From Desulfobacterales bacterium HSG2 (GTDB lineage: Bacteria > Desulfobacterota > Desulfobacteria > Desulfobacterales > 4be13), in the NCBI GenBank assembly GCA_030378035.1, contig JAUCGI010000034.1, positions 1 to 38,458 of the forward strand: a DNA stretch of 38,458 nucleotides, written 5' to 3'. Position numbers and translations under genes: made by a program. The notes beneath the pieces are model-generated. The model saw only the letters and a list, made by a program, of their open reading frames with translations, ran no database searches and was not told the origin of the DNA. How positions within the stretch are numbered: the stretch's first letter is position 1; the number at the start of each line of letters is the position of its first letter. Below, in pieces: positions 2,490-37,726 of the stretch.

Positions 2490-4250
2490 TTATGACTGAC
2501 AGATTTCGGCTACGGTCCGAAAGCTGAACGCATTCTTGTGAAAGTTAAATTCAGTTATGTCCGCTGTCATGTTGATTTGCCTTTTCAGATCATCATTCAA
2601 CTCTGCCCAGAGTTCCTTGAGAAAGGCTTTGGCCTGTTCTTCCAATTCTATGATTTCTTCGGATGAACCTCTGCCAATTGAATGGATAATTGAGAGGTTG
2701 TTGCGAATGTCAGCCAATTCTCCTAACCGCTTTGTCTTTTGGCTGTCATTAAATATTTGACCATATATTTCAGAAGGTTGCAATGATACAGGGTCACCAT
2801 TGTCTTTTCGGAAAGGATTATTCCCTTGCTTTATAAACATATATTGGGCATATATCTCCAGAATACGAGTCAGTCTGACCGTTGCATCTTCAAATCGTCC
2901 CTGACGTTTTCTTCTTTTCGCGTTACAGAACAAATCAAAGGCAAAACAGATAAACCACTTGCGCTCGGCCATTGGCATCAGAGTCTCCAGAGTCTCGCAA
3001 TTAATTCTTCTCGTATTGCCGAACTTATCGAAAATTTTCCTTGTTTTTGCAGGTTTAAAATCAGAAGGCCGTCCGATTTCTTTATAGAAGTCAGATATGC
3101 AGTTTTGCCTTTCTCTCTCATCATGACACCCTGAAAACTTATGATAAGTTTCTTTTAACCGATCAATTGATCTCCCGTTTGTACAGGTTTGGAAGTAAGT
3201 ATCCAGATTACTTTCGACGCTTCTGCGAATTTCGTCAACTTTCTTTAATGAATTAAGTATGAGTCCGATCCCCGATTCAGTTGACGCTAATCTGCCATAT
3301 GCTTTGTTGTATTCAAATCGATCCCACCATTTATAAGCCTCTGCAGATTGCCTCAGTTTCCGAATCTCACCTGATAAATCCCCGAGTTCAAAAATCCTTA
3401 TCTTTTCGTTCAATTTATTTTCAATTTCAGTGAAAATATCACAAGCCGCCTGATAATTATGATTATCAAACAACTCCTTACCCTTATTCATCAAATCCAC
3501 GTTATAAATGTCATAAGGATTATCCAATTTGTTCAGAAACTCTGTTCCGCACTGGACCTTATCTTTATCGTAGCCCTCAAAATCCACATAAAAGATATGA
3601 ATATCCTTTTCAATGGCCGCTGCCAAAAATGCGGAAACATCCATGGATTTCTTCCCTCCGGTGATATCAATGGCAACTTTCTTGTCCTTGCCGGCATCCT
3701 GAATGATCTGACGAATTTTTTGAAACGCGTCAATTGAGCCGATTGTATTGACAATCACAGGTTCCATAATGGCAATGGATTTACCCTCTCCGCATTGACT
3801 GATAAGGTGTTCAAAATAACTCTCAATCGGAATATTTCCGTCAAAACGTCTTGTCTCATTGGTCACAAGCGGATAGACACGAGTAGGGCAAATCGTCAGG
3901 ATGGTATGTATCAGCGGCTGAAGGCTAAAGCCCACAAGTGTAATCAGAACATCATAAGATTCATGTAACTGAACAAGCCCCGGTAGTCCCAAGTTATCCG
4001 GATGCTGTTTCTGCAACTCATAAACCGCCCTGAAAATTTCAAGGGACTGACCGAAAAAGTTGCGTTTATCAGTGCCTGATACCGGTTTTATGCCTTTTTT
4101 AGCTGTATTGAAATAGCTGTGAATTCCTGAGTTCCCGGATAATGTATCCGCTTTTCCAATATTCCGAAGTCGTTCTTCCCACTCCTTTTCCGTTTTTCCA
4201 TTATTGCCATTTAACAATTTTTTGCGTCGGTTTAAAATCTTTTTATCCAT
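2490..4250 (-). CDS. CARF-HEPN CRISPR ancillary ribonuclease (TIGR02710/Csm6-like)
   Basis: This 586-residue protein is the last gene of the csm operon. The N-terminal half has a CARF-type Rossmann layout: a first strand and helix near residues 100-120 (VLITLVGFSLQPLIHTI) and the signature DITGGKKSM at 195-203, which in CARF proteins lines the cyclic-oligoadenylate pocket. A helical middle follows, then a C-terminal HEPN region with RNNLSIIH at 516-523, an R-x6-H catalytic motif. The order CARF, helices, HEPN and the length fit the TIGR02710 family of type III accessory proteins. The expected role is an RNase switched on by cOA made by Cas10. Its ATG overlaps the stop of the upstream receiver-HEPN gene by one base (TAATG), so the two are translationally coupled. 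The assignment to CARF is firm; which cOA ring size it reads cannot be seen. Confidence 0.85.
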   Translation of the reverse strand: MDKKILNRRKKLLNGNNGKTEKEWEERLRNIGKADTLSGNSGIHSYFNTAKKGIKPVSGTDKRNFFGQSLEIFRAVYELQKQHPDNLGLPGLVQLHESYDVLITLVGFSLQPLIHTILTICPTRVYPLVTNETRRFDGNIPIESYFEHLISQCGEGKSIAIMEPVIVNTIGSIDAFQKIRQIIQDAGKDKKVAIDITGGKKSMDVSAFLAAAIEKDIHIFYVDFEGYDKDKVQCGTEFLNKLDNPYDIYNVDLMNKGKELFDNHNYQAACDIFTEIENKLNEKIRIFELGDLSGEIRKLRQSAEAYKWWDRFEYNKAYGRLASTESGIGLILNSLKKVDEIRRSVESNLDTYFQTCTNGRSIDRLKETYHKFSGCHDERERQNCISDFYKEIGRPSDFKPAKTRKIFDKFGNTRRINCETLETLMPMAERKWFICFAFDLFCNAKRRKRQGRFEDATVRLTRILEIYAQYMFIKQGNNPFRKDNGDPVSLQPSEIYGQIFNDSQKTKRLGELADIRNNLSIIHSIGRGSSEEIIELEEQAKAFLKELWAELNDDLKRQINMTADITEFNFHKNAFSFRTVAEICQS

Positions 4251-5794
4251 TATACTGGTCTGACCTCCTTGACAACACCGTCTTCAATTCTGGTAATTTC
4301 AACATTCTGGCTCGTCGTATCCGGCGGAGAACTCCCCTTCAAACCCGCCGGGCGAGGCTGTGCTTTGATTTCCACTTTTCTGGGGCCAAGCTTTACTGCA
4401 TTTTTGATGACCTGACCTTCTCTCCAAAACGACTCGTTGAAAATGCGCTTTGCCAATTCATCAAGAAAAGCGATCTGGGACAAATCATTAACAATGAATG
4501 TTATCTTAATATCAACCTGATTTGTATTCAAACTCAAGGCCACTTCAGGTGGTAATTTTACAGGAAATAATCCATGCCAGAAAGCTTGATAAAGAAGCTT
4601 GACAGACCATTTCTGCACCATTTCCCTGGGTTGCTTTTTTGGCCCCCCAAACTCTTGTATCAGCGTGATAAATTCCCCTGCAATAAACCCCTCCTTCATC
4701 TCCTTGCGATTTTTCAAAAGCAGGTAATAGGATTCCACCAGATGATTTCCTATATTCTTCATGTAATCTGAAGAAAGTTCAAAAAGTTCGAATAGAATTT
4801 TTTCATAATGTTCAGATTTTCCAATATCCAAGTTCATGTATGCCTGCATTCCTGTTATAAACAGATAAGCCACTTCCTTTTCCGCCAGTTCTCTGTCCAT
4901 CTTACTATGAGCTGTCCAATTTCTCAATATTCGCATCTGGTTCTGGCAGGTTGTTTCAAACATAAGTTCCGGATTTGTGCGATCAGGCACTCCCTTTATA
5001 GAACTATTCGTCTCCCAATCAGCGGCGAGTTCCTTCAGAAACAAAAAATACATATTTCTTCTGCTTTCCTCATCCACAGGCGGATGCAGAGGAAAGAATC
5101 GCTCTAATATCTTTAAATAATTCAAAACATAGAGGCGTTCATCTTCTGAAACGTCTTTGCTTTTGTGGAAAATCAGAAAATCCCTCAGTTCATCGGAACT
5201 TTTCTCTTTCAGCCGGTCTGTCAGAAAGCGACATCCTTCAATTACCCCGCGCCGCAGGGTCAGATAAGGACTGTTTGCCTTTTCGCTTAACCAATTTCTC
5301 AGTTCCGAGTCATCTTTTCCTTTTGTGAAAGGGTGCTTGGGTTTCTCAATTTTTAATGCATTGCATGCTTTTTCAAACACTTCCAACTGATCGTCATTGG
5401 CTGTAAAAAAACCGATGTTATCATCAGGAAATCCCTTTTTAATAAGCTGGTCATAAATGTAAAACCCCGCTCTTTTGTCGAAATCCTCATCTGATCGGAA
5501 ATCAGGAGGGCGTTTTTCAGAAGGGGTTTCATATCGTTCCAGATTAATGTCAATCAAAATCACGTCAAAATCATCCGCTTTGTATGTTTCAAACCAATCC
5601 TGATACGATTTGCAGACAGCGATCCGATGGACGCTGTGATTTTCAAACAAGGCAGGGAGAGCTGTATCTATCTCTTTATTTTTATCATAGTATCTCTTAA
5701 AAACATCTTCCGAAAACAGAGATTTGAACATATTTTTTGCCATCACAAAAATATTGGGAACATTGTCAAAATCCTCTAGCCATAAAATTTTCAT
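4250..5794 (-). CDS. Receiver-domain HEPN protein in the csm operon
   Basis: This 514-residue protein starts like a response regulator: LWLED at 4-8 supplies the acidic pair E7/D8, DVILIDINL at 77-85 gives D82 as the candidate phospho-acceptor, and FFTAND near 129-134 gives the conserved Thr (T131). A Lys-Pro region follows near 151-158, as in strand 5 of receivers. There is a 40-residue insertion between strands 1 and 3. After a helical linker, the motif RNWTAH at 291-296 (R-x4-H) lies in a helical region and marks a HEPN nuclease. The last 45 residues resemble the tail of Csm5. It overlaps the histidine kinase gene by 4 bases (ATGA) and the CARF-HEPN gene by one. A receiver joined to a HEPN RNase in a CRISPR operon is unusual. 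The likely role is a phosphorylation- or docking-controlled RNase; it could instead be a pseudo-receiver without phosphotransfer. Confidence 0.75.
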   Translation of the reverse strand: MKILWLEDFDNVPNIFVMAKNMFKSLFSEDVFKRYYDKNKEIDTALPALFENHSVHRIAVCKSYQDWFETYKADDFDVILIDINLERYETPSEKRPPDFRSDEDFDKRAGFYIYDQLIKKGFPDDNIGFFTANDDQLEVFEKACNALKIEKPKHPFTKGKDDSELRNWLSEKANSPYLTLRRGVIEGCRFLTDRLKEKSSDELRDFLIFHKSKDVSEDERLYVLNYLKILERFFPLHPPVDEESRRNMYFLFLKELAADWETNSSIKGVPDRTNPELMFETTCQNQMRILRNWTAHSKMDRELAEKEVAYLFITGMQAYMNLDIGKSEHYEKILFELFELSSDYMKNIGNHLVESYYLLLKNRKEMKEGFIAGEFITLIQEFGGPKKQPREMVQKWSVKLLYQAFWHGLFPVKLPPEVALSLNTNQVDIKITFIVNDLSQIAFLDELAKRIFNESFWREGQVIKNAVKLGPRKVEIKAQPRPAGLKGSSPPDTTSQNVEITRIEDGVVKEVRPV

Positions 5795-8241
5795 CCCTCT
5801 GCTCCTTCGCTAAAAAGTTTTTTTGGAACTTTAAACTCCGCCATAAACTTTAATCCTTCGGTTTTATGATTGAAATCACTGCCCAGAGCCTTGTTCAACT
5901 GTGTGAGAAAATGCAGGCCTTTCCGATTGTGTGAGACACGATTATTGAAGGTATTCCTGCATGAAAAGAGAAAATGATTATTTTCCTCTTTCCATATCAA
6001 CTGAACAGGCTCTCTGCCGTCAGCATATTTCAGAGCATTATAAATTAATTCTGATAAACAGACAAACAGAAAATTGAAGCGTATCCCCCTCTCATTTAAA
6101 AACAGATTATCGTGGACAGAAATCTTCAGAACAGGGAGATGAACAGTCATCCAATCTAAAACCTTATGTGCGTTTTCAGGATTAATATCCAAGCTTAACA
6201 CATTATTCAGAAAGGATTCCCGCAATTTTGACAATGAATCCTCATTCTCAAAATTTATCAGACGCTTGCGCTGGCCAATAAAAGCATCTGAAAACATTAT
6301 ATGCGTTAATTCATGTTTGAAAATCAGGGCAAACAGATATGTCACATTGTGCTGTCCTCCGTGGTCTTCTGCCCATTTCCGACGGAGGGCGCGGGTTTTT
6401 CTTGCATAAAATTTGAACATTTCAAGCAGGTTGTTCACTAAGTTGAATGTTGAAATAAGATTTATCACATAGTTAATATTGTCATAAACTTCTTTGTCCT
6501 GATAATTTTCACCTGCAATTTCTCTCAGAAAGTTCAGAACTTCTTCTGCAAGTGCGGGGCCTGTACTCAGGATATTGCCCAGAGTATGCTTTAAATCTGA
6601 GAAGAGGCGTTTTTCTGTTTCGAGTTTAATTCTTAAATGCTCTTCTTCTCGCTCCTTCTGATTCGCAGAAGTTATCAGGAGAAAAATCGTTTGTTCGTTG
6701 ACATATTTTTTGTTTTTTAAAACAAACTGGATATATGATTGAGAATCTCCGATAGCCCAGGCACGGGAAAAGGACTCAGTTGCCTTTTCGATTTCATTTT
6801 GGTTATCATAGATAATTCCCAGATCAGTCAGGGCGGTCAGAATGCGGTTATCCTCGATTACAAAGCCATTCCTGTAAGAACTATAGGCTTTTTCATAGCA
6901 ATCCATCGCCTCGTAATAATTTCCCAAAGCATTAGAAATGATTCCCAGGCCCACAAGCGCATCTGCGTGATCGGATCTGATCTTCAAAGCTTTTTCATAC
7001 GCTTCGACAGCGCTTTCATATTCCTCTGACTCGGTATATATATCTCCCAGCTTGATATAAGGTTCCGGAGTTTCAGGATTGATGTCAAGAATTTTCTGGT
7101 AACATTGAATTGCTTTGTCATCTTTTAATTCTTGATAGACAGTTGCCAGTGTGTAAAGGGTTTCAGCATCATGAGGGGCTATATTTAATATTGCCCGAGC
7201 GTATTGAATAATCTTCTCATTGCTTGTGGTGTCAGTCTTAAACTGATAGTCCTCTGATTTCTGATAGATCTCCGAGAACCCTGATCTTTCGATGTCACTC
7301 TTAATTTGAAGATCAAGGGCTTCCCGATAATCCCGAAGAGCATCTTCTGATTGTCCTGACTTTTCATGGCAAAGGCCCAAATGAAAAAAGGCATCCGGGT
7401 CATCCTGTCTGATTTCTATATACTTTTTATAATATTCGGCTCCTTTTTCATATTTTTTTAATTCTTCAGAATAAATGGTGGCGATATTATAAAGCGCATC
7501 TTCGATAGAATCTGGCCTGATTTCCAAAAATTTCTCATACCATTCAATAGCTTGTTCATACTTCTTCCAATCGTCATAAGTAACTGCTATTTCGTAAAAA
7601 ACATCAGCTTTTTTTTCTTTTTCCTGAGCGGCTTTTAACGCCTGTCTCAATCCTTGAACCGCATCTTCATGTCGATTTTTTTCTCGGTATTCCCTGGCAT
7701 GTTCTGTTAATTCATCATAAATAAACGCCAATTCATTGAGAACTTCGACTTCTTGTTCTTTTTGTGTGATACCCAAATCCCAATTCAAGGTTTTAATCGC
7801 ATTTTCATAGTGACTTCGACATTCCTCATGCTCTGCTAATTCGTCATAAATAAATGCCAATTTTTTAATCGCATCTTTATACTGATCTCGATATTCCCTG
7901 TCATGTTCTGTTAATTCATCATAAATAAATGCCAATTCACTGAGAACCTCGACTTCTTGTTCTTTCCGTGCAATACCCAATGCCTGATTCAAGGTTTTAA
8001 TCGCATCTTTATACTGATTTTTTTCCCTATACTCCATGGCCTGCTCTGTCAATTCATTACAAACAAATGAAAATTCATTGAGAACCTTGTATTTTGCAAT
8101 ATCCAAAGCCTGCTTCAAAGTTTCAATCGCATCTTTATAACATCCGTTACGGCGATAATTTTCCGCCAACTGTATTGATTCATGAAACTCGGAAAGTTCA
8201 TCTTCTATTATTTGAGCCTGCGCTAACATCATATCCACCAT
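5791..8241 (-). CDS. Cytosolic TPR-sensor histidine kinase in the csm operon
   Basis: This protein of about 816 residues has no signal peptide or membrane helix. Residues from about 10 to 500 are TPR-like repeats (for example YNIATIYSEELKKYEKGAEY, DAFFHLGLCHEKSGQSEDAL). A coiled segment leads to FSDLKHTLGN, with H552 as candidate phospho-acceptor in a dimerisation helix. The C-terminus is a GHKL ATPase: N-box ELIYNALKYADG (N735) and a glycine box KGLHFL. The classic DxGxG box is replaced by a CRNTF-type sequence, as in LytS/DegS-like kinases. The open frame can also begin at TTG 8250; neither site has a good ribosome-binding site, and ATG 8229 behind GGTGG is another option. It begins about 10 bases after csm5 and overlaps the receiver-HEPN gene, which makes that gene its obvious partner. 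The input is unknown; TPRs suggest protein binding, perhaps the Csm complex. Confidence 0.8.
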   Translation of the reverse strand: MVDMMLAQAQIIEDELSEFHESIQLAENYRRNGCYKDAIETLKQALDIAKYKVLNEFSFVCNELTEQAMEYREKNQYKDAIKTLNQALGIARKEQEVEVLSELAFIYDELTEHDREYRDQYKDAIKKLAFIYDELAEHEECRSHYENAIKTLNWDLGITQKEQEVEVLNELAFIYDELTEHAREYREKNRHEDAVQGLRQALKAAQEKEKKADVFYEIAVTYDDWKKYEQAIEWYEKFLEIRPDSIEDALYNIATIYSEELKKYEKGAEYYKKYIEIRQDDPDAFFHLGLCHEKSGQSEDALRDYREALDLQIKSDIERSGFSEIYQKSEDYQFKTDTTSNEKIIQYARAILNIAPHDAETLYTLATVYQELKDDKAIQCYQKILDINPETPEPYIKLGDIYTESEEYESAVEAYEKALKIRSDHADALVGLGIISNALGNYYEAMDCYEKAYSSYRNGFVIEDNRILTALTDLGIIYDNQNEIEKATESFSRAWAIGDSQSYIQFVLKNKKYVNEQTIFLLITSANQKEREEEHLRIKLETEKRLFSDLKHTLGNILSTGPALAEEVLNFLREIAGENYQDKEVYDNINYVINLISTFNLVNNLLEMFKFYARKTRALRRKWAEDHGGQHNVTYLFALIFKHELTHIMFSDAFIGQRKRLINFENEDSLSKLRESFLNNVLSLDINPENAHKVLDWMTVHLPVLKISVHDNLFLNERGIRFNFLFVCLSELIYNALKYADGREPVQLIWKEENNHFLFSCRNTFNNRVSHNRKGLHFLTQLNKALGSDFNHKTEGLKFMAEFKVPKKLFSEGAEG

Positions 8242-8252
8242 TAATAACAAAA

Positions 8253-10070
8253 CTATTTTTTACGAACCTTCACCACAATGCCGTCCTGTATTTCCACAAC
8301 CGTCACGTTCATCACTCTGGCATACATGGACGGTTTGCCGATTAAAGCTGCCGGCTGTCTCTGTCCTTTAATCTTTATTTCGCACGTCTCACCGGCCTTG
8401 ATGATAGGCGCGTTTCGGATGACATCCCCTTTTTCATACCTTGACTTGGAAGCCGGTTCTGGGTGACTTTTCTGCAAATTGGCCAATGCTTCCCGCATTA
8501 CATCCGAAGATACGCTTTCAGAAGCTGTGCGGGATTGCTTTTTTGTTTTAGAGATTTTCTTCTTCTCATCTTTAAAAGGGCGTTGGGCGGGTAGTTCGGC
8601 ATTTTCCACAATCCTGAGATGACACCATCCCAAAGGCATAACCGCTCTGTTCTGTCCCACAACCAAAGCCCGTGATTTCGGAGCCGGTTCATTTCGCCGC
8701 ATTCTCAGATCACGAATCCCTTTGCGCTGTTCCGGTTCAAGATTCATAAACTGGGTTTTGGTCAGCAGACCGCCGCCCCATCCGGTTCGGAAGATATAGC
8801 CTCCGTCATTTACCCGTGTGCGAGAATAAAATTTTTCAATATCCTGAGTATCCACTTTGAACTGCCGTTTTGAATGGTCGTCCCTGGTGACAGGCTTTTT
8901 GTTTCTGAAAAACACGTCTTCCTCCAGCCATAAAGATTGAAAGAACGCATTCACAGCAGATAACAGATTTTCAACGCTTTGCAGATACGGAGGCAGATTT
9001 CCCTCTCCGAAAAATGTTTCTGCCATATCCAGATCAATAGTAATTTTGAATCGCGCCAGGCTATCCGCAGAAACGCATTGGAGATCAATATCAAATCCTT
9101 TCTGATAGGTCTGATTACCCTGGACACAGACTGCCCTTGCCGTCTCGTTGCAAAGTTCCATCCGGAGGAAATTGGCGTCACTGACCTTTACGACACGGAA
9201 CACGTCTCGGAGGATGCCGCTGGTGTGTCTCCAGCGTTTGGAATAAGGGCCCTGAACCTCTCTTTTGTCAATGATAAAACTCTGATCACTGAGAGTTTTT
9301 CCACGGGCATCACTGAACTGGGCAGAGAATTTCTCGGCCAAATCACGCTTTCCTGTTCTCCTGTTATTTTTGTTTTTCAACTGCCCTTTTTCCAGCCGAG
9401 TCAACTTATCGCTCACAAAATCTTGCAGCCACCGCTTTTTTCCGGGTTCAGACATCACCTTCCATAACACTGCATTTCGGATCGCGCCTTTGAGTGACGA
9501 ACCGGGGATGAAATATCGGTCCTTGGCACTCTGGATAAATGTCTGACGTTTGCCGGCCTCATCAATCTGAATGATTCCGGTTGCCATCTGCCTGAGTTCT
9601 TCAAGGGACGGAAAGATATTATAACGGGTCAGAAAATAGTCAAGCGATATGTTTTTATATCGATCATAATCATCACGTCTGAAGCTGAACTGAAGTGAAG
9701 GATTCTGTTTTCTCATATAATTTTTGAACTCACGGACATTGACCCGATATCCCTGTCCGTCTTTCTTCACATAGGCTACGGGCCCCCGGATATGGCCACT
9801 GGCAATAAAGTCCTCCAATCGGATTCGGATATTCAGAAAATCGGCAAACCCTTGGATATCGTTGTACCCCTGATCTTCATCGCGGACAAAGTATTTCACA
9901 TATTCATCCACCTTGGCTTTTCTGTCAATATACTCACACAGTTTGTCATTATCAATCTGATAGACATTGCCGTCTTTTCCTTTGAGCAATCCTTCGCCGT
10001 AATCAAACGCCTTGCCTTTGATATGCATGAGGCTGAGGGTTTTCAGTTCAACAATTTTGCTTATGTACAT
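8253..10070 (-). CDS. csm5: Type III-A effector subunit Csm5, with C-terminal extension
   Basis: A RAMP (Cas7-like) protein that caps the crRNA 3' side of the Csm complex. The hallmark FIPGSSLKGAIRNAVL is present near residues 190-205, and a Gly-rich segment TGWGGGLLTKT, then PKSRALV and PLGWCHL, mark the usual Csm5 end. At 605 residues it is far longer than common Csm5 proteins. The extra length is mainly the final 100 residues: a Lys/Ser-rich linker (KKKISKTKKQSRTAS), then a short beta-like module ending IQDGIVVKVRKK. That module resembles the end of the receiver-HEPN protein two genes downstream. ATG 10070 follows csm4 by 17 bases. Function is secure from motif and position; the extension is unexplained. 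Confidence 0.9.
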   Translation of the reverse strand: MYISKIVELKTLSLMHIKGKAFDYGEGLLKGKDGNVYQIDNDKLCEYIDRKAKVDEYVKYFVRDEDQGYNDIQGFADFLNIRIRLEDFIASGHIRGPVAYVKKDGQGYRVNVREFKNYMRKQNPSLQFSFRRDDYDRYKNISLDYFLTRYNIFPSLEELRQMATGIIQIDEAGKRQTFIQSAKDRYFIPGSSLKGAIRNAVLWKVMSEPGKKRWLQDFVSDKLTRLEKGQLKNKNNRRTGKRDLAEKFSAQFSDARGKTLSDQSFIIDKREVQGPYSKRWRHTSGILRDVFRVVKVSDANFLRMELCNETARAVCVQGNQTYQKGFDIDLQCVSADSLARFKITIDLDMAETFFGEGNLPPYLQSVENLLSAVNAFFQSLWLEEDVFFRNKKPVTRDDHSKRQFKVDTQDIEKFYSRTRVNDGGYIFRTGWGGGLLTKTQFMNLEPEQRKGIRDLRMRRNEPAPKSRALVVGQNRAVMPLGWCHLRIVENAELPAQRPFKDEKKKISKTKKQSRTASESVSSDVMREALANLQKSHPEPASKSRYEKGDVIRNAPIIKAGETCEIKIKGQRQPAALIGKPSMYARVMNVTVVEIQDGIVVKVRKK

Positions 10071-10087: not shown

Positions 10088-11179
10088 TCAGTCATTCGGA
10101 TCAATTTTCATGGGAACGGTCAGCGCGTAGCCGTACCGATAAATCGGATGGGGATAGCCCTGACCCGAGGGCGTCACATCGGGTGACAGGTCAGTCAGAT
10201 GCCCCACCGGCTTGCCTGTAAAGACACTCCCTTCCGAGAACATATAAACTGTCTTGCGTTTCACCTGATGGGCCACGCTGAGTGAACCGGTCCACCCTTT
10301 TCGCAAGACCAGGTTATACGCAACGGCTGTTTCGTGATACGCATCATTACCGGTTGGCTCGTCTCCGATTGAATTGGGATGCCAGAGCGAAAGCAGACAG
10401 TATGCGTTCTTTCCCTCATCACTCCCGGGAAATATTGCTCCCCAATCGTCCTGATGATTCCCTGTTTCATCAAAACTGAGAAATTCAACATCCCGAATTG
10501 CTCCCAGACCGATGCCCCGATTCCCCCCGATACCGGATGTGTCTTGTATGATTCCCAATATCCGTTCCACGGCAGATTTGACTTCCTGGTATTTTTCTTC
10601 CTCTGTTTGCAGCAAGAAATAGAAACCGGATTGCTTCTCGGCGTCAAAATACGTTGTGCCTGAATGATAAATCTGTGAAGCCAACGATATCCTGTCCAAT
10701 GTGTTATGGGGGCGGAGGATGTCTGCCATCTTTTTGGGCTGATTTTCCTCATCAGCAATCTCATCAATGCCGGTCTCATCAGCGGTTTCATCAAATCCGA
10801 TCCAGTTCTTAAAATGAGAAAGCCTGATAAAGTTCAGCGATTTAATCTCTTTCTTGTTATCCGGATCATCCGGTTCAGGATTGCTTTTTGAAAAAGGAAA
10901 CGGCACAGACAGAGGCTTTGGCAGCCAGTATTCATCACCATCACAGGGAAAAGCAGAGGAAATTTTAAAAAGCGGATTCCCTGTTTTAAATGAATCGAGA
11001 AACGTATCAAACGGAATGCCGGCCACTTTCCCTGCAATGGCCCAGTTATTGCATAATGCGGCCCAGAGGGTGTCTGAATGGATAAGTTTGTCTGTTCCTT
11101 CGATACCTGTCCCCGGGGTGGATGCGCCGATGTGGATGGCATTTTTAAAATAAAGTCTGACGATCAAAGTTTTTTTCAT
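10088..11179 (-). CDS. csm4: Type III-A effector subunit Csm4
   Basis: A 363-residue RAMP protein that holds the 5' handle of crRNA next to Cas10. It starts with the RAMP strand RLYFKNAIHIGAS, then LIHSDTLWAALCNNW, the standard Csm4 signature near residues 32-46. The glycine-rich helix-capping loop GIGGNRGIGLGAI lies near residue 215, and the C-terminus has the Csm4 block VYMFSEGSVF and a short final strand. The length is near normal. It sits between csm3 (33 bases upstream) and csm5 (17 bases downstream). Nothing essential appears to be missing. Confidence 0.9.
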   Translation of the reverse strand: MKKTLIVRLYFKNAIHIGASTPGTGIEGTDKLIHSDTLWAALCNNWAIAGKVAGIPFDTFLDSFKTGNPLFKISSAFPCDGDEYWLPKPLSVPFPFSKSNPEPDDPDNKKEIKSLNFIRLSHFKNWIGFDETADETGIDEIADEENQPKKMADILRPHNTLDRISLASQIYHSGTTYFDAEKQSGFYFLLQTEEEKYQEVKSAVERILGIIQDTSGIGGNRGIGLGAIRDVEFLSFDETGNHQDDWGAIFPGSDEGKNAYCLLSLWHPNSIGDEPTGNDAYHETAVAYNLVLRKGWTGSLSVAHQVKRKTVYMFSEGSVFTGKPVGHLTDLSPDVTPSGQGYPHPIYRYGYALTVPMKIDPND

Positions 11180-11211
11180 CGCACCTTACTCGCTTTGAAT
11201 TACACATCATA

Positions 11212-12045
11212 TCAGGCAAAAGAAATGGTCCGAATCGCGTCTTTGCAGTTGGAAAAAGAGAAAGTTTCAGGAGGGATAAAATCTTCCAAAGTTTCCCCCT
11301 CAACGGATTTCACGTCAAACCTGTTAATTTCAAAACTGACCTGTCCGTGTCCGCGGGAGGTGTTGCCTCCGAGTCCTGTATGCTCCTGGATGGTTTCCAA
11401 TGCCCACAAGATATTCTTCAAATCCTCACGGAGTTTTTTATTGCATTTTGTATGCGGGTCATCTCCGGCATCTGCCACGAAGTTCCCGTTTTCATAAGTT
11501 TGGATTTTGTAAACCATTTCAAAGTCGAATTTTGCGCCGGCAGGTACGCGCTCAATGGTACGCGGCATGGCATGAGCCGTGATCCGGTCCACGACAATTT
11601 CGATTTTGGCTTCTGTCACAGGCAGATTGTTGAGCATATAAAAATGGCTGCTTTCCTCAGACAACATTGCATCCCGCACCACAAGAACAGAGGGCAGGCC
11701 CGGTTCAGAAGCTGAATTGCCAAAAACACGGCATGCCTGGGATTTCAGGGCGAGTTCATACGCTGCCTCACCATGATCTTTTTTGCTGTAGAATTCCAAC
11801 CAGAGATTTTCGCTCATCTTTGTCAACGTATTTCCCACTTTCTTTTCCACCAAGGCTCTCATTCTTCCGCGAAGCGAACTTCCGGGAATGTATGGTTCAT
11901 TGGTAACCGGATTTTTAATCACCGGGCTGTCAATGCCGCCCTTGTCAATGGAATCCGATGTGCCGCCGATATGGAGGCCCGTAACGGCCTCAATCTCGCC
12001 CCCTATTTTTACAAACCCGAGCAGTTTTATTTGTTTGTCCGGCAT
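11212..12045 (-). CDS. csm3: Type III-A backbone subunit and target RNase Csm3
   Basis: The 277-residue Cas7-type filament subunit that binds the crRNA spacer and cuts target RNA every six bases. The start VTGLHIGGTSDSI leads to GGIDSPVIKNPVTNEPYIPG, followed by SSLRGRMR. D39 corresponds to the catalytic Asp (D33 in Streptococcus thermophilus Csm3), so target RNA cleavage should be intact. A second RAMP glycine loop, GLGGNTSRGHGQVSF, is near residue 220. ATG 12045 lies 11 bases after the csm2 stop. Length is typical or slightly long for the family. Confidence 0.93.
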   Translation of the reverse strand: MPDKQIKLLGFVKIGGEIEAVTGLHIGGTSDSIDKGGIDSPVIKNPVTNEPYIPGSSLRGRMRALVEKKVGNTLTKMSENLWLEFYSKKDHGEAAYELALKSQACRVFGNSASEPGLPSVLVVRDAMLSEESSHFYMLNNLPVTEAKIEIVVDRITAHAMPRTIERVPAGAKFDFEMVYKIQTYENGNFVADAGDDPHTKCNKKLREDLKNILWALETIQEHTGLGGNTSRGHGQVSFEINRFDVKSVEGETLEDFIPPETFSFSNCKDAIRTISFA

Positions 12046-12056
12046 GTTAAATCCTC

Positions 12057-12491
12057 CTATCTGAAAGTTTCGTGATAATCCAGAATGGCTTCGAAGAATT
12101 CTATGAACAATTCCAGGTCTTTCACCTCTTGGATACGGTTGTCATGGAGACAACTGGCAATGACCCTGTACAGCGGCTCAATTTTGCTTTTCTCAGTTCT
12201 CTTGACGCTGCCTGCCAGCTTCGGCAGCAAAAATTTCAGTTTGGCTTTGTCTTTGATTTCCTCATCAGGTTTAAGATGCAGATTCTTCTGGCCGATAGCT
12301 TTGACATAAGTATAAAAACGTCGCAGTTGGGTTGGGGTAATCCTTTTTTTGTGAAGTTCCTCTGCAATCATAGCCGCGTAACAGGGCAGTTCTTCCTCCT
12401 GATCACCCAGCGGAATATTTTTAAGATTCTCAAGGATCGTTTTTACAGGTATCTTTTCTTCACAAACTTCGTCTATAAATATGTTTGACAT
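12057..12491 (-). CDS. csm2: Type III-A small subunit Csm2
   Basis: This all-helical 144-residue protein carries the Csm2 signature TPTQLRRFYTYVKAI near residues 52-66. Csm2 forms the inner filament along the crRNA-target duplex. Its ATG overlaps the csm1 stop (TAATG), so the two genes are coupled. Its size, position between csm1 and csm3, and the motif together make the call firm. Confidence 0.9.
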   Translation of the reverse strand: MSNIFIDEVCEEKIPVKTILENLKNIPLGDQEEELPCYAAMIAEELHKKRITPTQLRRFYTYVKAIGQKNLHLKPDEEIKDKAKLKFLLPKLAGSVKRTEKSKIEPLYRVIASCLHDNRIQEVKDLELFIEFFEAILDYHETFR

Positions 12492-14473
12492 TATCGGGTC
12501 CTCCTCAGAAATGAAATCCAGTTCAGCGCGATGTGCAGGTGGGGCATATTCGGATTATTTCTCCTGTAAAGATAGACCATGAGTTTTAAAAACAGTTTTT
12601 CCTGTCCGAATCTCTTTAGTCCTCTGCAAACATCCGCCATTATTCGCGCCATTGTCGGCATATAACGCTCGCCGGACTGCTGAAATTTTTCTGTTATCAT
12701 AAAGCATTTTTCAATGCTCTGATGACTGATTTTATCCATAACAAACAGGCTGCGTTTATTTTCCTCTCCGGATATGAATCCACCCAGTTTAACAAATTCC
12801 CGCATGAGTGGCAACAAAAATCTGTTTCCTTTTTCCCAAGACATTGAGAGCATGTAGCGAATTTCCCGTTCATTTCCTTTTTGTTTTAATTGATTGCGGC
12901 GTTGAACTTTGACCGGGTCATGAAACAAAGCAATTCGATTCTTTTGCGGTTCTGTATCATTTTTTTCCTTGCATGTCTTGGCCTCATGTTCCGCTGCTTT
13001 ACTGCGCGCCGCCATCTGGTAAAGCGGGAATTTGGGGTGATGCAGGGTCAGGCCCCCGGAAATTGAGGCTGGTTCGCCATCTTTATTTCTAATATCATTC
13101 TTTTCACAATACTGGGCAAAGCATTTCCGGATGTCAAAGGCCAGTTCTGCAACCTCATTCCACGCCCCGACGATGAACAGATCGTCTCCGCCTGCATATA
13201 TGATCGAAATATTGCGTTTTTTTGCTTTCTCTGTTTCATCTTCAATATTTTTGTCAATCCGGGTGGGAAGTTTCCCTGATTTTAACGCATCGGCATTAAA
13301 AAGCGCAGCGGCATTTTTTTCCGAACTGCTTCTGATTTCTCGGAAATTCCCTTCACAAATCCGGTTCAGAATCACTTTGAAGAAATAATTCAACTGATGG
13401 GATCGCTGTGCCAACTCCGTGGGGGATTTGATTTCGGAAAACAGCTTTCCGAGATTGTCCACATCCATACGGAGCGCGGCGATCATATCCGCGCCACAGG
13501 AACACGCGGCAAGTCCGGCAAAGGAAGCCGTCTGGTATTTGATCTCATCTGAGGTTATATCCGGCTTTGTCTCCTGAGTGACTTTGAGTTCCGCATCTTT
13601 TGCATATTGAGGGAGGTCTTTAACTTTTCGGACATAGTAAGCATAGAAAAAATCTGTCCCGATTTTCCGCCAATCTCCTTTTTTATGATTATTGTCAATC
13701 GGCTTAATTGAGTAAATCATATAAGTGTCATAAGGTGTGGGAAAACAGATATGCCCTTTTGTTCCTTTTTCCGGTGTTATTTTTTCAGAATCATATCGGT
13801 AAATCTGCTTTCCATCCATCAGTTCTGTCAGATGATCGCCAAGATGCCACAAATGAAATGAAAGCGGGCTTACAGACATATCATCCAATTTTTTCATTAC
13901 AGACAAATCATCCCGCCTGGTTATCTGACATTCTTTTTCAATATCCGTCTGCACAGGCATTGTAGGCCTTAATAATGTTTCAAGCAAAGTGCAGTTATCT
14001 TTTCTCCAGAATTTTCGCCGTTTCAGTTTGTCCAACTCATCAGCCTGCTTCTGTCGTTTTCTTTGAAAATCGGTATTAATTTCATGAGTGGAGGCTTCAA
14101 GCAGATGAATGGCAATAAACAATTTCCCGGAAAATTCATCATACGCCCATTTATTCAGTTTATTGGAAAAATTTCTGATTTTGGTATTAAGTCCGTTTTT
14201 ATTTTCCAGAAGCAGGGAAAAAGCTCCGCCTCCTGAGTAAATAACACCGGTTCTCACTTTTCCGGCCCGGATCAGATAGTCCTTCGGTTTATTTTTGACC
14301 GGGGTTTTTCCTGCTAATTTCAAAATTTCACAGACGATATGCTCGGTCAGCAGTTCCAACATAAAACTGCGCGCGCGCAACGATTTTAGCGCGCCTTTGG
14401 ATGATATGGTATAAACAGTATCCTGAATTCCTGAAAAATCACCGGATACCAGCATTAGTTCTTTGTGGTTCAA
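12491..14473 (-). CDS. csm1: Cas10/Csm1 without HD domain, GGDD cyclase intact
   Basis: This 660-residue Cas10 starts at TTG 14473 behind AGAGG (spacing 5). It opens directly with the first Palm block, SGDFSGIQDTVYTIS at residues 10-24 and KGALKSLRARSF, which in common Csm1 proteins follows an N-terminal HD nuclease domain of roughly 200-270 residues. An in-frame TGA at 14498-14500 closes the frame upstream, so the HD domain is truly absent here. The second Palm has AALRMDVDNLGKLF and YAGGDDLF, with GGDD at 428-431, the active site for making cyclic oligoadenylates. The protein should therefore signal to the CARF-HEPN protein but lack HD-type single-strand DNA cutting. It heads the csm operon. 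Confidence 0.92.
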   Translation of the reverse strand: MNHKELMLVSGDFSGIQDTVYTISSKGALKSLRARSFMLELLTEHIVCEILKLAGKTPVKNKPKDYLIRAGKVRTGVIYSGGGAFSLLLENKNGLNTKIRNFSNKLNKWAYDEFSGKLFIAIHLLEASTHEINTDFQRKRQKQADELDKLKRRKFWRKDNCTLLETLLRPTMPVQTDIEKECQITRRDDLSVMKKLDDMSVSPLSFHLWHLGDHLTELMDGKQIYRYDSEKITPEKGTKGHICFPTPYDTYMIYSIKPIDNNHKKGDWRKIGTDFFYAYYVRKVKDLPQYAKDAELKVTQETKPDITSDEIKYQTASFAGLAACSCGADMIAALRMDVDNLGKLFSEIKSPTELAQRSHQLNYFFKVILNRICEGNFREIRSSSEKNAAALFNADALKSGKLPTRIDKNIEDETEKAKKRNISIIYAGGDDLFIVGAWNEVAELAFDIRKCFAQYCEKNDIRNKDGEPASISGGLTLHHPKFPLYQMAARSKAAEHEAKTCKEKNDTEPQKNRIALFHDPVKVQRRNQLKQKGNEREIRYMLSMSWEKGNRFLLPLMREFVKLGGFISGEENKRSLFVMDKISHQSIEKCFMITEKFQQSGERYMPTMARIMADVCRGLKRFGQEKLFLKLMVYLYRRNNPNMPHLHIALNWISFLRRTR

Positions 14474-14551: not shown

Positions 14552-14821
14552 TTACGGGTCTCCGAATATCTTTGTGCTGGTGATTGATAATAAGGTGTTC
14601 CCACTAAATTTATTTCTGTATGACATACTTCCATGGGTTTTGCAATCTCTTTTTTTCACTTTTTTCCCCAGCCCGAAACTCGTCCCCTTTCCCACACTCA
14701 CCCAAGCCCCCGGAATAAGCAGAGGCAGAAATTCGCCAAGCTTCCCCTCGTAGCTTACCGTCCCCCCTGACATAAACATGGGTGTAATGGTTTCTATCTC
14801 AAATTCTGTCTGTTGTTTCAC
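14552..14821 (-). pseudogene. Chimeric RAMP remnant (Cmr1-like start joined to Cas6-like end)
   Basis: The frame starts at GTG 14821. The first 20 residues, with FEIETITPMFMSGG, read like the start of Cmr1. They run straight into VSYEGKLGEFLPLLIPGAWV and GKGTSFGLGK, which is the C-terminal glycine loop of Cas6-family RAMPs. After GLGK the sequence is unlike any RAMP. At 89 residues it is far too short for either family, so a deletion has probably joined two genes. It is the only trace of Cas6 in the window, so crRNA processing must come from elsewhere in the genome. Confidence 0.7.
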
Positions 14822-14892
14822 GCTGTTTTCCGTTTTTTATACGATTCATCAACCGCTGCATCCAGAATATCGTCTTTAATATGATCAATCAT
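14818..14892 (-). CDS. Possible 24-residue overlapping small ORF
   Basis: ATG 14892 overlaps the end of the HEPN gene and its TGA overlaps the GTG of the Cmr1/Cas6 remnant. The peptide starts MIDHIKDDILDAAVDESYKK and is strongly charged. The tight overlaps on both sides suggest a coupled small gene, or a surviving bit of a larger lost gene. No function is recognised and it could be chance. Confidence 0.3.
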   Translation of the reverse strand: MIDHIKDDILDAAVDESYKKRKTA

Positions 14893-17736: not shown

Positions 17737-17804
17737 GACTTTGTAGTGGATAGACAGAAGTTCCGCTGTTCCGGTTATGCCTCATCCGCTTGGCGGAAGC
17801 CGGG

Positions 17805-20800
17805 GTTTCAATCCTTGTTTTAATGGAAGTGAGTCTCAAAGCACCCAAGAAACGACCAAGAAACCCCGGAAGCAGGTTTCAATCCTTGTTTTAATGGAAG
17901 TGAGTCTCAAAGTCCGTAACAGCAAGCTGGATGAGCAGGCTGTCCGAGTTTCAATCCTTGTTTTAATGGAAGTGAGTCTCAAAGAAGTGCCAGTATGTCA
18001 CTTATGATGAAGTTTCAATCCTTGTTTTAATGGAAGTGAGTCCGGAAACGGGAAGTATCCGAGTTTCAATCCTTGTTTTAATGGAAGTGAGTCTCAAAGA
18101 ACTGAAGCAGGGAAAGAATGCTATGTTTCAATCCTTGTTTTAATGGAAGTGAGTCTCAAAGTTGAAGAACGGAAGGCCGCTCTTGACTACGAAAGTTTCA
18201 ATCCTTGTTTTAATGGAAGTGAGTCTCAAAGTATATTCTGTGTTCAGAGCGGGAAGGTTCGATTCACGTTTCAATCCTTGTTTTAATGGAAGTGAGTCTC
18301 AAAGAGGACGGGGTTTTTTCATTCCGCCATGCTGCCTTAAAGTTTCAATCCTTGTTTTAATGGAAGTGAGTCTCAAAGCTTTTCAATCTGCGGTAAAGAA
18401 CTCAGCTATGCAAGTTTCAATCCTTGTTTTAATGGAAGTGAGTCTCAAAGCGGTGACGAATGCCGCCACTTCTTTCCGCTGAAGTTTCAATCCTTGTTTT
18501 AATGGAAGTGAGTCTCAAAGTACAGTTGTTTGCCATCTCTTCATAGAGTATCTGGGTTTCAATCCTTGTTTTAATGGAAGTGAGTCTCAAAGAGAAAGTG
18601 GTGACAGTTCGTCCTTATGTCATCCAAGTTTCAATCCTTGTTTTAATGGAAGTGAGTCTCAAAGACGACATCTTGCGGGAAACATACCGAGCTATGGGGT
18701 TTCACTTGTTTTAATGGAAGTGAGTCTCAAAGTCTGCTTCCGGTACTCCTGCGGAAGCAGGTCCAGACTGTTTCAATCCTTGTTTTAATGGAAGTGAGTC
18801 TCAAAGTCGTTGAAGTTAATCACGACCCTGATAAATATGAGGTTTCAATCCTTGTTTTAATGGAAGTGAGTCTCAAAGCTCCTCTGTGATGAATTCTTGC
18901 CATCTGATCGTGAAGTTTCAATCCTTGTTTTAATGGAAGTGAGTCTCAAAGATATGCTTGGCACTTATGTCGCATCTTCGTTGTTGAGTTTCAATCCTTG
19001 TTTTAATGGAAGTGAGTCTCAAAGTCCACCATCACATTCCAAAGATCCCACGCCTTCCTACGTTTCAATCCTTGTTTTAATGGAAGTGAGTCTCAAAGAA
19101 GCCGTCACCATCGGCTCCACTGCAACCGGAAAGTTTCAATCCTTGTTTTAATGGAAGTGAGTCTCAAAGTTACAAACTGTTTGATACGATGAATGTTCTC
19201 AGAAAGTTTCAATCCTTGTTTTAATGGAAGTGAGTCTCAAAGCGCAATTGTAGGAAGTCGGAAGCTAACAGCCACGGCGTTTCAATCCTTTTTTTAATGG
19301 AAGTGAGTCTAAAAGCGACAAGCTGTTCAACCACGCCTAATTATAAGGTGTTTCAATCCTTTTTTTAATGGAAGTGAGTCTCAAAGTCGCCTACATCGAA
19401 TACTTGGCGGAAGTCGGGTATGTTTCAATCCTTGTTTTAATGGAAGTGAGTCTCAAAGACCCGGAAACCATTTAATCGCTCGGCTCGGACTGAGTTTCAA
19501 TCCTTGTTTTAATGGAAGTGAGTCTCAAAGAAGCTCGTCTAAAGTTAAGGGTTCTTCATCCTCTTGTTTCAATCCTTGTTTTAATGGAAGTGAGTCTCAA
19601 AGCGGGACCGCTCAGGCGATCCCGGATTCCATCAAAGTTTCAATCCTTGTTTTAATGGAAGTGAGTCTCAAAGTTCAGCCGGTTTACGATCTCAAACGTA
19701 GTAACAGAGTTTCAATCCTTGTTTTAATGGAAGTGAGTCTCAAAGACTATCAAGCTGGATGTCCATTGGTCTTCCGGAGGGTTTCAATCCTTGTTTTAAT
19801 GGAAGTGAGTCTCAAAGAATACGAAGTTGTACCGGGAAATTGGATCCCGGTTGTTTCAATCCTTGTTTTAATGGAAGTGAGTCTCAAAGAATCAAACAGG
19901 AGAGGAAAGCATGAAAATCGCAGTGTTTCAATCCTTGTTTTAATGGAAGTGAGTCTCAAAGAGGAAGCCATCAACGAAATGTCAGATTGCGGATGGGGTT
20001 TCAATCCTTGTTTTAATGGAAGTGAGTCTCAAAGAAGAGGAACTGCGGGAGGCCGTTAGGACGCAGATGTTTCAATCCTTGTTTTAATGGAAGTGAGATA
20101 GATATTCCGAACTAAAAGCTTTCAGATCATATGTTTCAATCCTTGTTTTAATGGAAGTGAGTCTCAAAGTCAGACAAGACAGGACATAACAGACAGGAAA
20201 AGATGTTTCAATCCTTGTTTTAATGGAAGTGAGTCTCAAAGAACAGGAAGAGAAGGGGCAGACAAATCGACAGGGCGTTTCAATCCTTGTTTTAATGGAA
20301 GTGAGTCTCAAAGTCAGGGTGTCAAACTCGGCCGGCCTGAAGGACCCGGGTTTCAATCCTTGTTTTAATGGAAGTGAGTCTCAAAGGTTGCAATCGTAGG
20401 AAGCCGAAAGCTAACGGCCACAAAGTTTCAATCCTTGTTTTAATGGAAGTGAGTCTCAAAGATCGGATTTCCTTTCGGCCCCTGCCCAGAGAACATGTTT
20501 CAATCCTTGTTTTAATGGAAGTGAGTCTCAAAGAACGAGCGGATAGATGCTCTTGTAAGCAGTGTCAACGGGTTTCAATCCTTGTTTTAATGGAAGTGAG
20601 TCTCAAAGCCACAATCCAAGCGGAATGACGGGGACTCCTACCGGTTTCAATCCTTGTTTTAATGGAAGTGAGTCTCAAAGAAAGAAAATATCTGACTCAT
20701 GGAGTCAGGCCTACGCAGTTTCAATCCTTGTTTTAATGGAAGTGAGTCTCAAAGCAGTAATAGGACGGTGACTATGTGGGGCCTGATGGTTTCAATCCTT

Positions 20801-21406
20801 GTTTTAATGGAAGTGAGTCTCAAAGAAATCAAACGTGATACGCCTCAGGTTGTTTTAGGATGTTTCAATCCTTGTTTTAATGGAAGTGAGTCTCAAAGTT
20901 GAATGCAAATACGCCGACTACACGGAGGCTTTTGGTTTCAATCCTTGTTTTAATGGAAGTGAGTCTCAAAGTATGTTGGAACCGTTGGCAGGTCCGTTAA
21001 AATCGTGTTTCAATCCTTGTTTTAATGGAAGTGAGTCTCAAAGCTGCCTTTGCTGATTTGGCACAACTTCATCACGGGAGTTTCAATCCTTGTTTTAATG
21101 GAAGTGAGTCTCAAAGAGCCCGGAGCTTTCAAGGCTGTCAGAGTAGGTGAGTTTCAATCCTTGTTTTAATGGAAGTGAGTCTCAAAGATGCAAAGAATGT
21201 GCTTTTAAAAATATGTGTTCAGAATGTTTCAATCCTTGTTTTAATGGAAGTGAGTCTCAAAGGTTCAAGTACATCTGGATCATACGTTACAACCATGTTT
21301 CAATCCTTGTTTTAATGGAAGTGAGTCTCAAAGTGTAAGCATGTTTCAAATCCTTAATTAAATTGTTTTGTTTCAATCCTTGTTTTAATGGAAGTGAGTC
21401 TCAAAG
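17805..21406 (-). CRISPR. Type III CRISPR array, 51 repeats and 50 spacers
   Basis: The repeat is 37 bp. On the plus strand it begins GTTTCAATCC and ends GTCTCAAAG; spacers are mostly 33-38 bp. On the minus strand the repeat ends GGATTGAAAC, the standard crRNA 5' tag ATTGAAAC, so I assign transcription to the minus strand, away from the leader at the right end. Altered repeats: 18012 lacks its end, with a shortened spacer; 18699 lacks 3 bases; 19279 and 19350 share a G-to-T change; 20069 loses its last third. All lie away from the leader, as expected for old units. The spacer at 18100-18124 is only 25 bp. No cas1, cas2 or intact cas6 is in the window. Confidence 0.97.
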
Positions 21407-36717: not shown

Positions 36718-36735
36718 TTTATTCCATCTGTCCCC

Positions 36736-36853
36736 TTATGTCGCACTGGTCAAAACCGGTTTCAGACCAGGCCCCTTCGTGACAGCAGAAGTGGATTCCG
36801 GGTCAGAACTGAAAAAATGTCCCATTTTTTCAATTCTGCCCGGAATGACAGGT
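36736..36853. repeat. Dispersed palindromic element, copy 2
   Basis: Same start (TTATGTCGCACTGGTCA) and internal hairpin as copy 1; the hairpin left arm differs by one base (AGAACTGAAAA). Confidence 0.9.
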
Positions 36854-36890
36854 CGGGACTCTGTAAAAAAGTATCTCAGAAAATGTCCCA

Positions 36891-37018
36891 TTATGTCGCA
36901 CTGGTCAGAACCGGTTTCAGACCGGGACCCTTCGTGACAGTAGAAGTGGATTCCGGGTCAGAATTGAAAAAATGTCCCATTTTTTCAATTCTGCCCGGAA
37001 TGACAGGTGGAGGTGGGA
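36891..37018. repeat. Dispersed palindromic element, copy 3
   Basis: Nearly identical to copy 4 and followed like it by GGGACACA and TCATTTTTGCACT. A degenerate fragment (CTCTGGTCAGAACCGGGCCC) continues near 37180. Confidence 0.9.
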
Positions 37019-37058
37019 CACATACCTCATTTTTGCACTCTGTAGAAAAGTATCTCAG

Positions 37059-37155
37059 AAGGTGTTTGAAAACTAGCCTGACCGCGAAGAACATGCCAGA
37101 AAGACAGGCATCGTGAGGTCGGAAACAATGCCTTGTAGGAGTTTTCAAACACCTT
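37059..37155. mobile_element. 97-bp MITE with 5-bp target duplication
   Basis: Perfect 16-bp terminal repeats AAGGTGTTTGAAAACT and complement, flanked by direct repeats CTCAG (37054-37058 and 37156-37160). The interior has a smaller palindrome (ATGCCAGAAAGACAGGCAT). It carries no coding sequence. Confidence 0.85.
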
Positions 37156-37725: not shown

Positions 37726-37726
37726 T

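What the first reader, a model, noticed from the sequence alone, without database searches (positions are those of the whole stretch)
4250..8241. Histidine kinase and receiver-HEPN pair built into a type III-A CRISPR operon
Seen: a cytosolic TPR protein ending in a GHKL ATPase (H552, N735) overlaps by 4 bases a protein with a receiver-like N-terminus (E7/D8, D82, T131) and an R-x4-H HEPN motif (R291-H296). Both lie between csm5 and a CARF-HEPN gene with no gaps. Known: type III ancillary effectors are normally switched on by cyclic oligoadenylates; TPR-CHAT is known in III-E. Inference: here target binding may be relayed by phosphotransfer or by TPR contact to a HEPN RNase. This would be a two-component CRISPR effector.
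Basis: partly seen in the sequence, partly recalled or inferred. Interest (0 to 1): 0.95.

Follow-up and report, generated by a model that had tools for sequence, protein, structure and literature searches.

The report
Kinase-switched RNase inside CRISPR operon
Inside a bacterial CRISPR operon sits a pair of genes for a histidine kinase and a receiver protein that carries the signature of an RNA-cutting enzyme; the kinase would likely switch the predicted RNA cutter on by handing it a phosphate, which would be a new way to arm CRISPR immunity.

Summary
Between csm5 and csm6 of a type III-A operon lie a TPR histidine kinase (5791-8241/8250) and a receiver protein with a HEPN-type R-x4-H motif (4250-5794), overlapping by 4 bases. 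The pair is a widespread two-gene module: of 65 ORFs matching the receiver-HEPN profile in 63 fetched loci, 57 have the same kinase family upstream, and the two proteins co-diverge (Mantel r 0.75, 0 of 2000 permutations). Acceptor D82 and HEPN R291/H296 are each kept in 86 of 88 proteins; kinase His and Asn are invariant in 40 of 40. The relatives found elsewhere mostly stand alone; a few lie by defence genes, CARF-like regulators or a CRISPR array. In the window's lineage the module joined a type III-A locus: it is also beside one in a second genome of the family (other position, partly decayed), and equal contig lengths link pair and Csm6 on two more contigs. Most likely phosphotransfer arms a HEPN RNase. 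Coupling to the Csm complex is inferred; HEPN fold, RNase activity and phosphotransfer are untested.

The parts
5791..8250 (-). TPR histidine kinase (819 aa from TTG 8250; 816 aa from ATG 8241)
   Evidence: TPR Pfam hits to E 1.4e-43; HATPase_c matched by 15 of 40 family members at E <= 0.5, best 0.0026; H555, E734, N738, G778 invariant in 40 of 40
6403..6696 (-). DHp helical hairpin with presumed phospho-donor H555 (H552 from the ATG), model residues 519-616
   Evidence: AlphaFold2 helices 519-579 and 586-616 (mean pLDDT 76.5; pLDDT in this stretch about 56-77); H invariant 40/40
5794..6363 (-). GHKL-type ATPase (CA) domain with N box E734..N738
   Evidence: alpha/beta order in the model; conservation; weak HATPase_c family hits
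4250..5794 (-). receiver-HEPN protein (514 aa)
5270..5794 (-). receiver (REC) domain, residues 1-175: E7/D8, acceptor D82, T131, K158
4427..5269 (-). helical output region, residues 176-456, with HEPN motif R291-N292-x3-H296
   Evidence: R291/H296 in 86 of 88; R291 near the end of helix 275-295, H296 in the next loop, the placement stated for HEPN in PMC3710099 (passage)
4253..4438 (-). Csm5-like C-terminal tail of the receiver-HEPN, residues 453-514
   Evidence: BLASTP E 5e-7, 23/63 identical to Csm5 541-603; shuffle test; found in 3 of 152 other receiver-HEPN sequences, P0001-P0003
8256..8450 (-). C-terminal tail of Csm5, residues 541-605, the presumed source of the receiver-HEPN tail
   Evidence: same tail in Csm5 of G495 and G399
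8253..10070 (-). csm5 (605 aa)
   Evidence: PADLOC Csm5 E 3.5e-26
2490..4250 (-). csm6 (CARF-HEPN)
   Evidence: PADLOC CARF_HEPN E 3.9e-81; Pfam Csm6 HEPN and 6H domains
12491..14473 (-). cas10, cyclase motif GGDD present, HD domain apparently missing
   Evidence: PADLOC Cas10 match starts at model position 195 of 577; GGDD; Cas10 ORFs of similar length and start in two relatives
10088..12491 (-). csm4, csm3, csm2
17804..21400 (.). CRISPR array, about 51 repeats (end approximate)
   Evidence: family D1, 51 copies, spacing about 72

Best explanation
Between csm5 and csm6 of a type III-A CRISPR operon lies a two-gene module, a TPR histidine kinase and a receiver protein with a HEPN motif, in which the kinase is predicted to phosphorylate the receiver and would thereby switch on a HEPN RNase alongside Csm6. 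Shown: the operon order and gene overlaps, pairing of the two families in many genomes, conservation of donor His, ATP-binding Asn, acceptor Asp and HEPN Arg/His, co-divergence of the two proteins, and a tail on the receiver-HEPN homologous to the Csm5 tail. Inferred: ATP-dependent autophosphorylation of H552/H555, transfer to D82, pairing of HEPN domains into an active RNase, and RNA cleavage that halts growth of the infected cell. Also inferred: the input. The variable TPR array is the presumed sensor, and the most likely input in this lineage is contact with the target-bound Csm complex, helped by the shared Csm5/receiver-HEPN tail. The Cas10, without HD part but with a cyclase motif, would arm Csm6 through cyclic oligoadenylate in parallel, so one operon would run two RNase outputs by two kinds of signal.
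For: Pairing: of 65 receiver-HEPN-profile ORFs in 63 loci, 57 have the kinase family upstream on the same strand, 48 of 57 within 25 nt, 21 with exactly a 4-base overlap; Mantel r 0.75 over 53 distinct pairs, permuted maximum 0.18. Active sites. Receiver fold. Linkage to type III-A: window; G399 (L142) with cas10-csm2-3-4-5-csm6, then about 2 kb on the kinase and the first 22 codons of the receiver gene; triple contig-length matches 12193 (P0001, P0090, P0094) and 10029 (P0003, P0092, P0097). Purifying selection on the kinase between window and G399, dN/dS 0.22 over 423 codons, like csm6 0.25 and cas10 0.19. Tail. Defence genes near stand-alone copies: PtuA (L104), mad3 (L108), PDC-M55C (L099), cas1-cas2 and array (L092), a nSTAND gene (L025).
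Against: The other loci fetched have no match to the window's cas proteins, so the module can work without CRISPR. No HEPN family profile matches the window protein (one of 47 members matched HEPN_Apea at E 0.096), and hhalign to three very small HEPN sets found nothing. The family is rare around the window: 1 of 395 genomes sampled in the phylum, the window's own, and 4 of 291 in the order. In G399 the kinase is shorter (498 aa), a second csm6 beside it is decayed, and the receiver reading diverges after 22 residues near the contig end. In G495, of the same family, a III-A operon with the tailed Csm5 has no such module next to it. In L107 a fused kinase-HEPN ORF lacks the receiver half that would carry D82. 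The 12193 and 10029 contigs were not read. No experiment.
Confidence: 0.47

Rival explanations
1. The pair is an autonomous two-component abortive-infection system that merely shares the operon. Its TPR kinase senses a phage product directly and never receives a signal from the Csm complex; co-transcription gives layered defence.
For: Copies in other phyla with no match to the window's cas proteins nearby and with quite different sensor parts: Sel1 (matched by 21 of 40 kinases at E <= 0.5), TPR, ATPase-TPR, or none. Position relative to csm6 differs between window and G399.
Against: Csm5-type tail found only in the window receiver-HEPN and its three closest relatives; linkage to Csm6 on related contigs by equal length.
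Confidence: 0.31
2. The kinase restrains rather than arms the RNase: constant phosphorylation keeps the HEPN off, and infection that blocks the kinase releases it, as in a toxin-antitoxin pair.
For: HEPN proteins are described as toxins of MNT-HEPN toxin-antitoxin systems (PMC3710099, passages); the two genes are tightly coupled.
Against: L109 and L110 carry a receiver-HEPN reading without a kinase of this family in the fetched stretch, though these are short, start WIES instead of WIED and may be inactive.
Confidence: 0.12
3. The receiver is a cyclic-nucleotide switch, as proposed for the type III protein Cam2, and phosphorylation is secondary.
For: Cam2 has a receiver domain and was proposed to bind cyclic oligoadenylate (PMC11229360, passages); receivers working without kinases are discussed for conflict systems (PMC8195603, passage).
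Against: For Cam2 the authors argued from the lack of an associated kinase; here a kinase is adjacent and co-diverges, and acidic pair, acceptor Asp, Thr and Lys are kept.
Confidence: 0.07
4. Not exclusive of the others: the Csm5-like tail is only a scar. The module landed at the csm5/csm6 junction and copied the csm5 3' end, whose last codons carry the ribosome-binding site of csm6, so the tail serves translation and not docking.
For: The tail abuts csm6 in the window and holds AAGGAGG just before the csm6 start; in two relatives the tailed csm5 directly precedes csm6. Most of the tail is of low confidence in the model.
Against: 15 positions are invariant across one Csm5 and four receiver-HEPN tails; the two window tails differ mostly at silent sites (dN/dS 0.19, but near saturation and only 60 codons).
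Confidence: 0.4

Closest known systems
Detocs (defensive two-component system: DtcA kinase, DtcB receiver 'buffer', DtcC response regulator with effector)
   Same: A histidine kinase passes a defence signal to a response regulator with a toxic effector (passages in PMC11249213, and PMC11728103; the primary paper, recalled as Rousset et al. 2023, was not held).
   Different: Two genes, no separate receiver 'buffer'; HEPN-type motif instead of the PNP effector; here inside a type III-A operon. Sequence relation to Detocs was not tested.
Cam2, receiver-domain protein of type III CRISPR loci
   Same: A receiver domain in a type III locus (PMC11229360, passages).
   Different: Cam2 has an N-terminal transmembrane part and a C-terminal receiver, and no associated kinase according to that paper.
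Csm6/Csx1 CARF-HEPN RNases
   Same: HEPN-type RNase motif, same operon.
   Different: Csm6 is gated by a CARF domain that binds cyclic oligoadenylate; neither protein of the pair has a CARF match.
DefensePredictor predicted systems with TPR, HATPase and REC domains
   Same: A figure legend lists TPR, HATPase and REC among the abbreviations for predicted systems (PMC13092281, passage).
   Different: Only the abbreviations were seen; whether they stand in one system, and with which effector, was not seen.

Membership tests
Type III-A CRISPR-Cas locus | cas10 with csm2, csm3, csm4, csm5 and a CRISPR array | tested here: met
Type III-A CRISPR-Cas locus | Cas10 with HD nuclease domain (common, not universal: 65% of III-A in PMC11229360, passage) | tested here: not met
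   Cas10 match starts at model position 195 of 577; Cas10 ORFs of similar length and start in G495 and G399
Two-component system | phospho-donor His in DHp and N box of the GHKL ATPase | tested here: met
   H555, E734, N738 invariant in 40 of 40; model
Two-component system | receiver fold with acidic pair, acceptor Asp, Thr/Ser and Lys | tested here: met
Two-component system | phosphotransfer between the two proteins | not testable with these tools
HEPN RNase | Rx4-6H motif with polar residue after R, at the end of a helix and start of a loop | tested here: met
   R291-N292-x3-H296, kept in 86, 85 and 86 of 88; model; criterion from PMC3710099 (passages)
HEPN RNase | HEPN fold or family profile | tested here: inconclusive
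   fold lists were filled by receivers; HEPN_Apea matched 1 of 47 members at E 0.096; hhalign negative with tiny sets
HEPN RNase | RNA cleavage | not testable with these tools
   -
Detocs | three genes including a stand-alone receiver (DtcB) | tested here: not met
   kinase, receiver-HEPN and csm6 abut; no third receiver between csm5 and csm6
Detocs | sequence homology to DtcA/DtcC | not tested
   no Detocs sequence was at hand
Cyclic-oligoadenylate-gated ancillary effector | CARF (or SAVED) sensor domain | tested here: not met
   no such match in the receiver-HEPN (Pfam, PADLOC); none among the listed matches of the kinase (25 of 31 Pfam families and both PADLOC families shown)
Cam2 | N-terminal transmembrane part followed by the receiver | tested here: not met
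   receiver starts at residue 1

The most novel reading that the evidence does not exclude
A CRISPR system armed by phosphorelay: the target-bound Csm complex activates a TPR histidine kinase, which recognises a tail shared by Csm5 and the receiver-HEPN, and the phosphorylated receiver turns on a second RNase that needs no cyclic oligoadenylate. The parent module is a widespread two-gene defence family with exchangeable sensors, recruited by CRISPR more than once.
Probability: 0.27. Interest if true: 0.94.

Novelty: new variant of a known kind. Interest (0 to 1): 0.82.

Why it matters
Type III systems are known to signal by cyclic nucleotides. A histidine-aspartate relay inside the operon would be a second, reversible signal channel with its own off-switch (dephosphorylation). 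The parent family, a kinase with exchangeable sensor plus a receiver with a HEPN motif, has matches (fragments counted) in 20 of 42 genomes of the order of L003 and 41 of 251 of the order of L010, so there are many simple two-gene systems in which the question can be tested.

Tried and rejected
Rejected: chance motifs (residue conservation). Rejected: a pair that is always CRISPR-linked (0 of 63 loci with a match to the window's cas proteins; other cas types would have been missed there, and L092 showed one). Rejected as Csm6 neighbours: the two PADLOC 'Csx1/Csm6' matches among 102 neighbour proteins are CARF-sigma54 regulators of L005 and L016. Led nowhere: viral contigs (no relative); BFVD (no match at E <= 0.001); PDB by sequence; hhalign to HEPN sets; a Csm6 profile against the neighbour ORFs and a sigma54 motif scan. 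HEPN and GHKL folds did not appear in the structure lists, which receivers and TPRs filled; this is no evidence against them. One more equal contig length between the receiver-HEPN and Csm6 lists, 7137 (P0066, P0158), comes from different sources and is taken as chance. A crude repeat test flagged 4 of 63 loci (L027, L092, L093, L122); only L092 was examined and is an array. The print label '|gap|<=20' stands for a cut of 25 nt. No paper with a histidine kinase/receiver-HEPN pair in a type III locus appeared in the listings of searches of an open-licence library; subscription papers are missing and only passages of a few papers were seen.
Full report
What is there. On the - strand, csm5 (8253-10070), a TPR histidine kinase (5791-8250), a receiver-HEPN protein (4250-5794) and csm6 (2490-4250) follow each other at the end of a type III-A operon with cas10, csm2, csm3 and csm4. 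The junctions are tight: 2 or 11 bases before the kinase start, a 4-base ATGA overlap between kinase and receiver, a 1-base overlap with csm6. A CRISPR array of about 51 repeats starts at 17804. Cas10 keeps GGDD but its profile match lacks the first 194 positions, where the HD part lies; the Cas10 ORFs of two relatives have a similar length and start.

Distribution. Eighteen loci came from genome contigs, one from plasmids (Methylomonas), none from viral contigs. By genome search at E <= 0.001: 1 of 395 in the phylum sample (the window's own), 4 of 291 in the order sample (one of them a short C-terminal piece), 7 of 124 in the phylum of L002 (one full-length, one C-terminal fragment, five weak receiver-part matches), 20 of 42 in the order of L003, 41 of 251 in the order of L010, fragments counted. 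From these I scanned 63 loci: 65 ORFs match the receiver-HEPN profile (one of them, in L027, only weakly, E 6e-7); 57 have the kinase family upstream on the same strand, 48 of 57 within 25 nt and 21 with a 4-base overlap (some places were held twice, 53 distinct pairs with the window). The eight without: a contig edge (L026), L093, three fragments (L101), a fused ORF without the acceptor half of the receiver (L107), and L109 and L110, whose receivers are short and start WIES instead of WIED. Kinase and receiver distances correlate (Mantel r 0.75, permuted maximum 0.18 in 2000). The sensor part varies: Sel1 matched by 21 of 40, TPRs, ATPase plus TPR, or none. So this is a modular two-gene two-component family.

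Defence setting. I scanned 102 of 246 neighbour ORFs from 27 loci with PADLOC (only 25 of 181 matched families were listed). Matches include Cas1 and Cas2 (L092), PtuA (L104), mad3 (L108) and PDC-M55C (L099), weaker ones mad2 (L097) and PtuA (L111). Of the 20 single proteins looked at had no match. In L092 a sensor-less kinase starts 65 bases from a CRISPR array with Cas1b/Cas2b-like genes. In L016 (Lentisphaerae) and L005 (Neomarinimicrobiota) a sigma54 activator with a CARF-like N-terminus lies upstream of the pair, next to it in L016 and with one gene between in L005; the Pfam CARF match is above its cut-off in L005 only. L025 has a nSTAND gene upstream.

Link to type III. None of the 63 loci matched the window's cas proteins at E <= 1e-3. 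The type III-A linkage I could find is confined to the window's lineage. The closest Csm6 relative P0094 (66%) lies on a contig of 12193 bases, as do the closest receiver-HEPN P0001 (79%) and a kinase P0090 (72%); P0097 (75% over 54% of the query), P0003 and P0092 share 10029. These contigs could not be read; the inference rests on equal lengths. In G399, of the same family, the III-A operon ends in csm6 and is followed by a GmrSD-like and an AAA-like gene, a decayed second csm6, the kinase (E 1e-146 to the window's catalytic part) and the first 22 codons of the receiver, after which the reading diverges near the contig end. The kinase is under purifying selection between the two (dN/dS 0.22). 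G495, of the same family, has a III-A operon without the pair beside it.

The tail. The window receiver-HEPN ends in about 60 residues that 3 of 152 other receiver-HEPN sequences share, the three closest P0001-P0003 (E <= 2.2e-34; next best E 2; 131 of the 152 reach the end of the family profile). It is homologous to the end of Csm5: BLASTP E 5e-7, 23 of 63 identical; score 88 against a mean of 29.8 and a maximum of 52 in 2000 shuffles, with other window proteins at 16-29. In the window's genome the tail profile finds only these two proteins and one weak short ORF (E 0.005). In 281 genomes of the order the two strong further hits are Csm5 of G495 (4.8e-11) and G399 (1.6e-6); four more are weak hits (E 0.003-0.008) in ORFs under 100 aa, not examined. 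So the tail probably belonged to Csm5 and came to the receiver-HEPN when the module joined the operon. It may dock both proteins to one partner, the TPR array being the obvious candidate, or be a scar that brought the csm6 ribosome-binding site (AAGGAGG).

How it most likely works. Target-bound Csm complex (input inferred) -> TPR kinase autophosphorylates (inferred) -> D82 (inferred from conservation and pairing) -> HEPN RNase on (inferred) -> arrest of the infected cell (inferred), in parallel with Csm6 switched by cyclic oligoadenylate (established for that family). The phosphotransfer step I hold likely; CRISPR input is roughly a coin toss against an autonomous sensor.

Compared with what is known. 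It works like Detocs but lacks the stand-alone receiver and the PNP effector; sequence relation was not tested. It differs from Cam2, whose authors note the lack of an associated kinase.

Noticed in passing
L092 7720-18217: Sensor-less kinase (298 aa) and receiver-HEPN next to a CRISPR array (28-nt repeat, about 37 copies) with cas2 and cas1 of I-B type; an RtcB RNA ligase gene lies on the other side, on the opposite strand.
   Followed up: partly
L016 5957-11278; L005 276-6458: Sigma54 activators with CARF-like N-termini (RtcR/PspF type) upstream of the kinase/receiver-HEPN pair in two phyla.
   Followed up: partly
P0087: A close receiver relative fused to a diadenylate-cyclase-like domain (PF02457) in place of the HEPN region, which suggests exchangeable effectors.
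   Followed up: no
L027 (G000 contig C207, 60000-70000): The window's own genome holds a second TPR kinase/receiver cluster with an extra receiver-like gene and several short DHp-like proteins.
   Followed up: partly
window 14885-16607: RiboL-PSP-type HEPN gene overlapping a DUF262-like gene (name recalled for the latter), a separate toxin-like pair upstream of the operon.
   Followed up: no
window 14552-14821: Only a C-terminal fragment of cas6 (89 aa) lies before cas10.
   Followed up: no
window 7637-8085: Direct repeats of 107-135 nt inside the kinase's TPR part; the type III-linked kinases differ in length (P0092 593, P0090 705, window 819 aa).
   Followed up: partly
L142 8823-10860: GmrSD-like and AAA-like genes and a decayed second csm6 between csm6 and the kinase in G399.
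   Followed up: partly
L010 12056-13735 and similar Methylococcales loci: A conserved protein of about 560 aa (NUDIX match in L010) and PIN-like genes downstream of the pair.
   Followed up: partly
L025 1853-11203: 1830-aa zinc-ribbon/nSTAND protein followed by ATPase-TPR kinase and receiver-HEPN.
   Followed up: partly
window 35989-37758: Two look-alike genes of unknown function (242 and 184 aa) with repeats between them.
   Followed up: no
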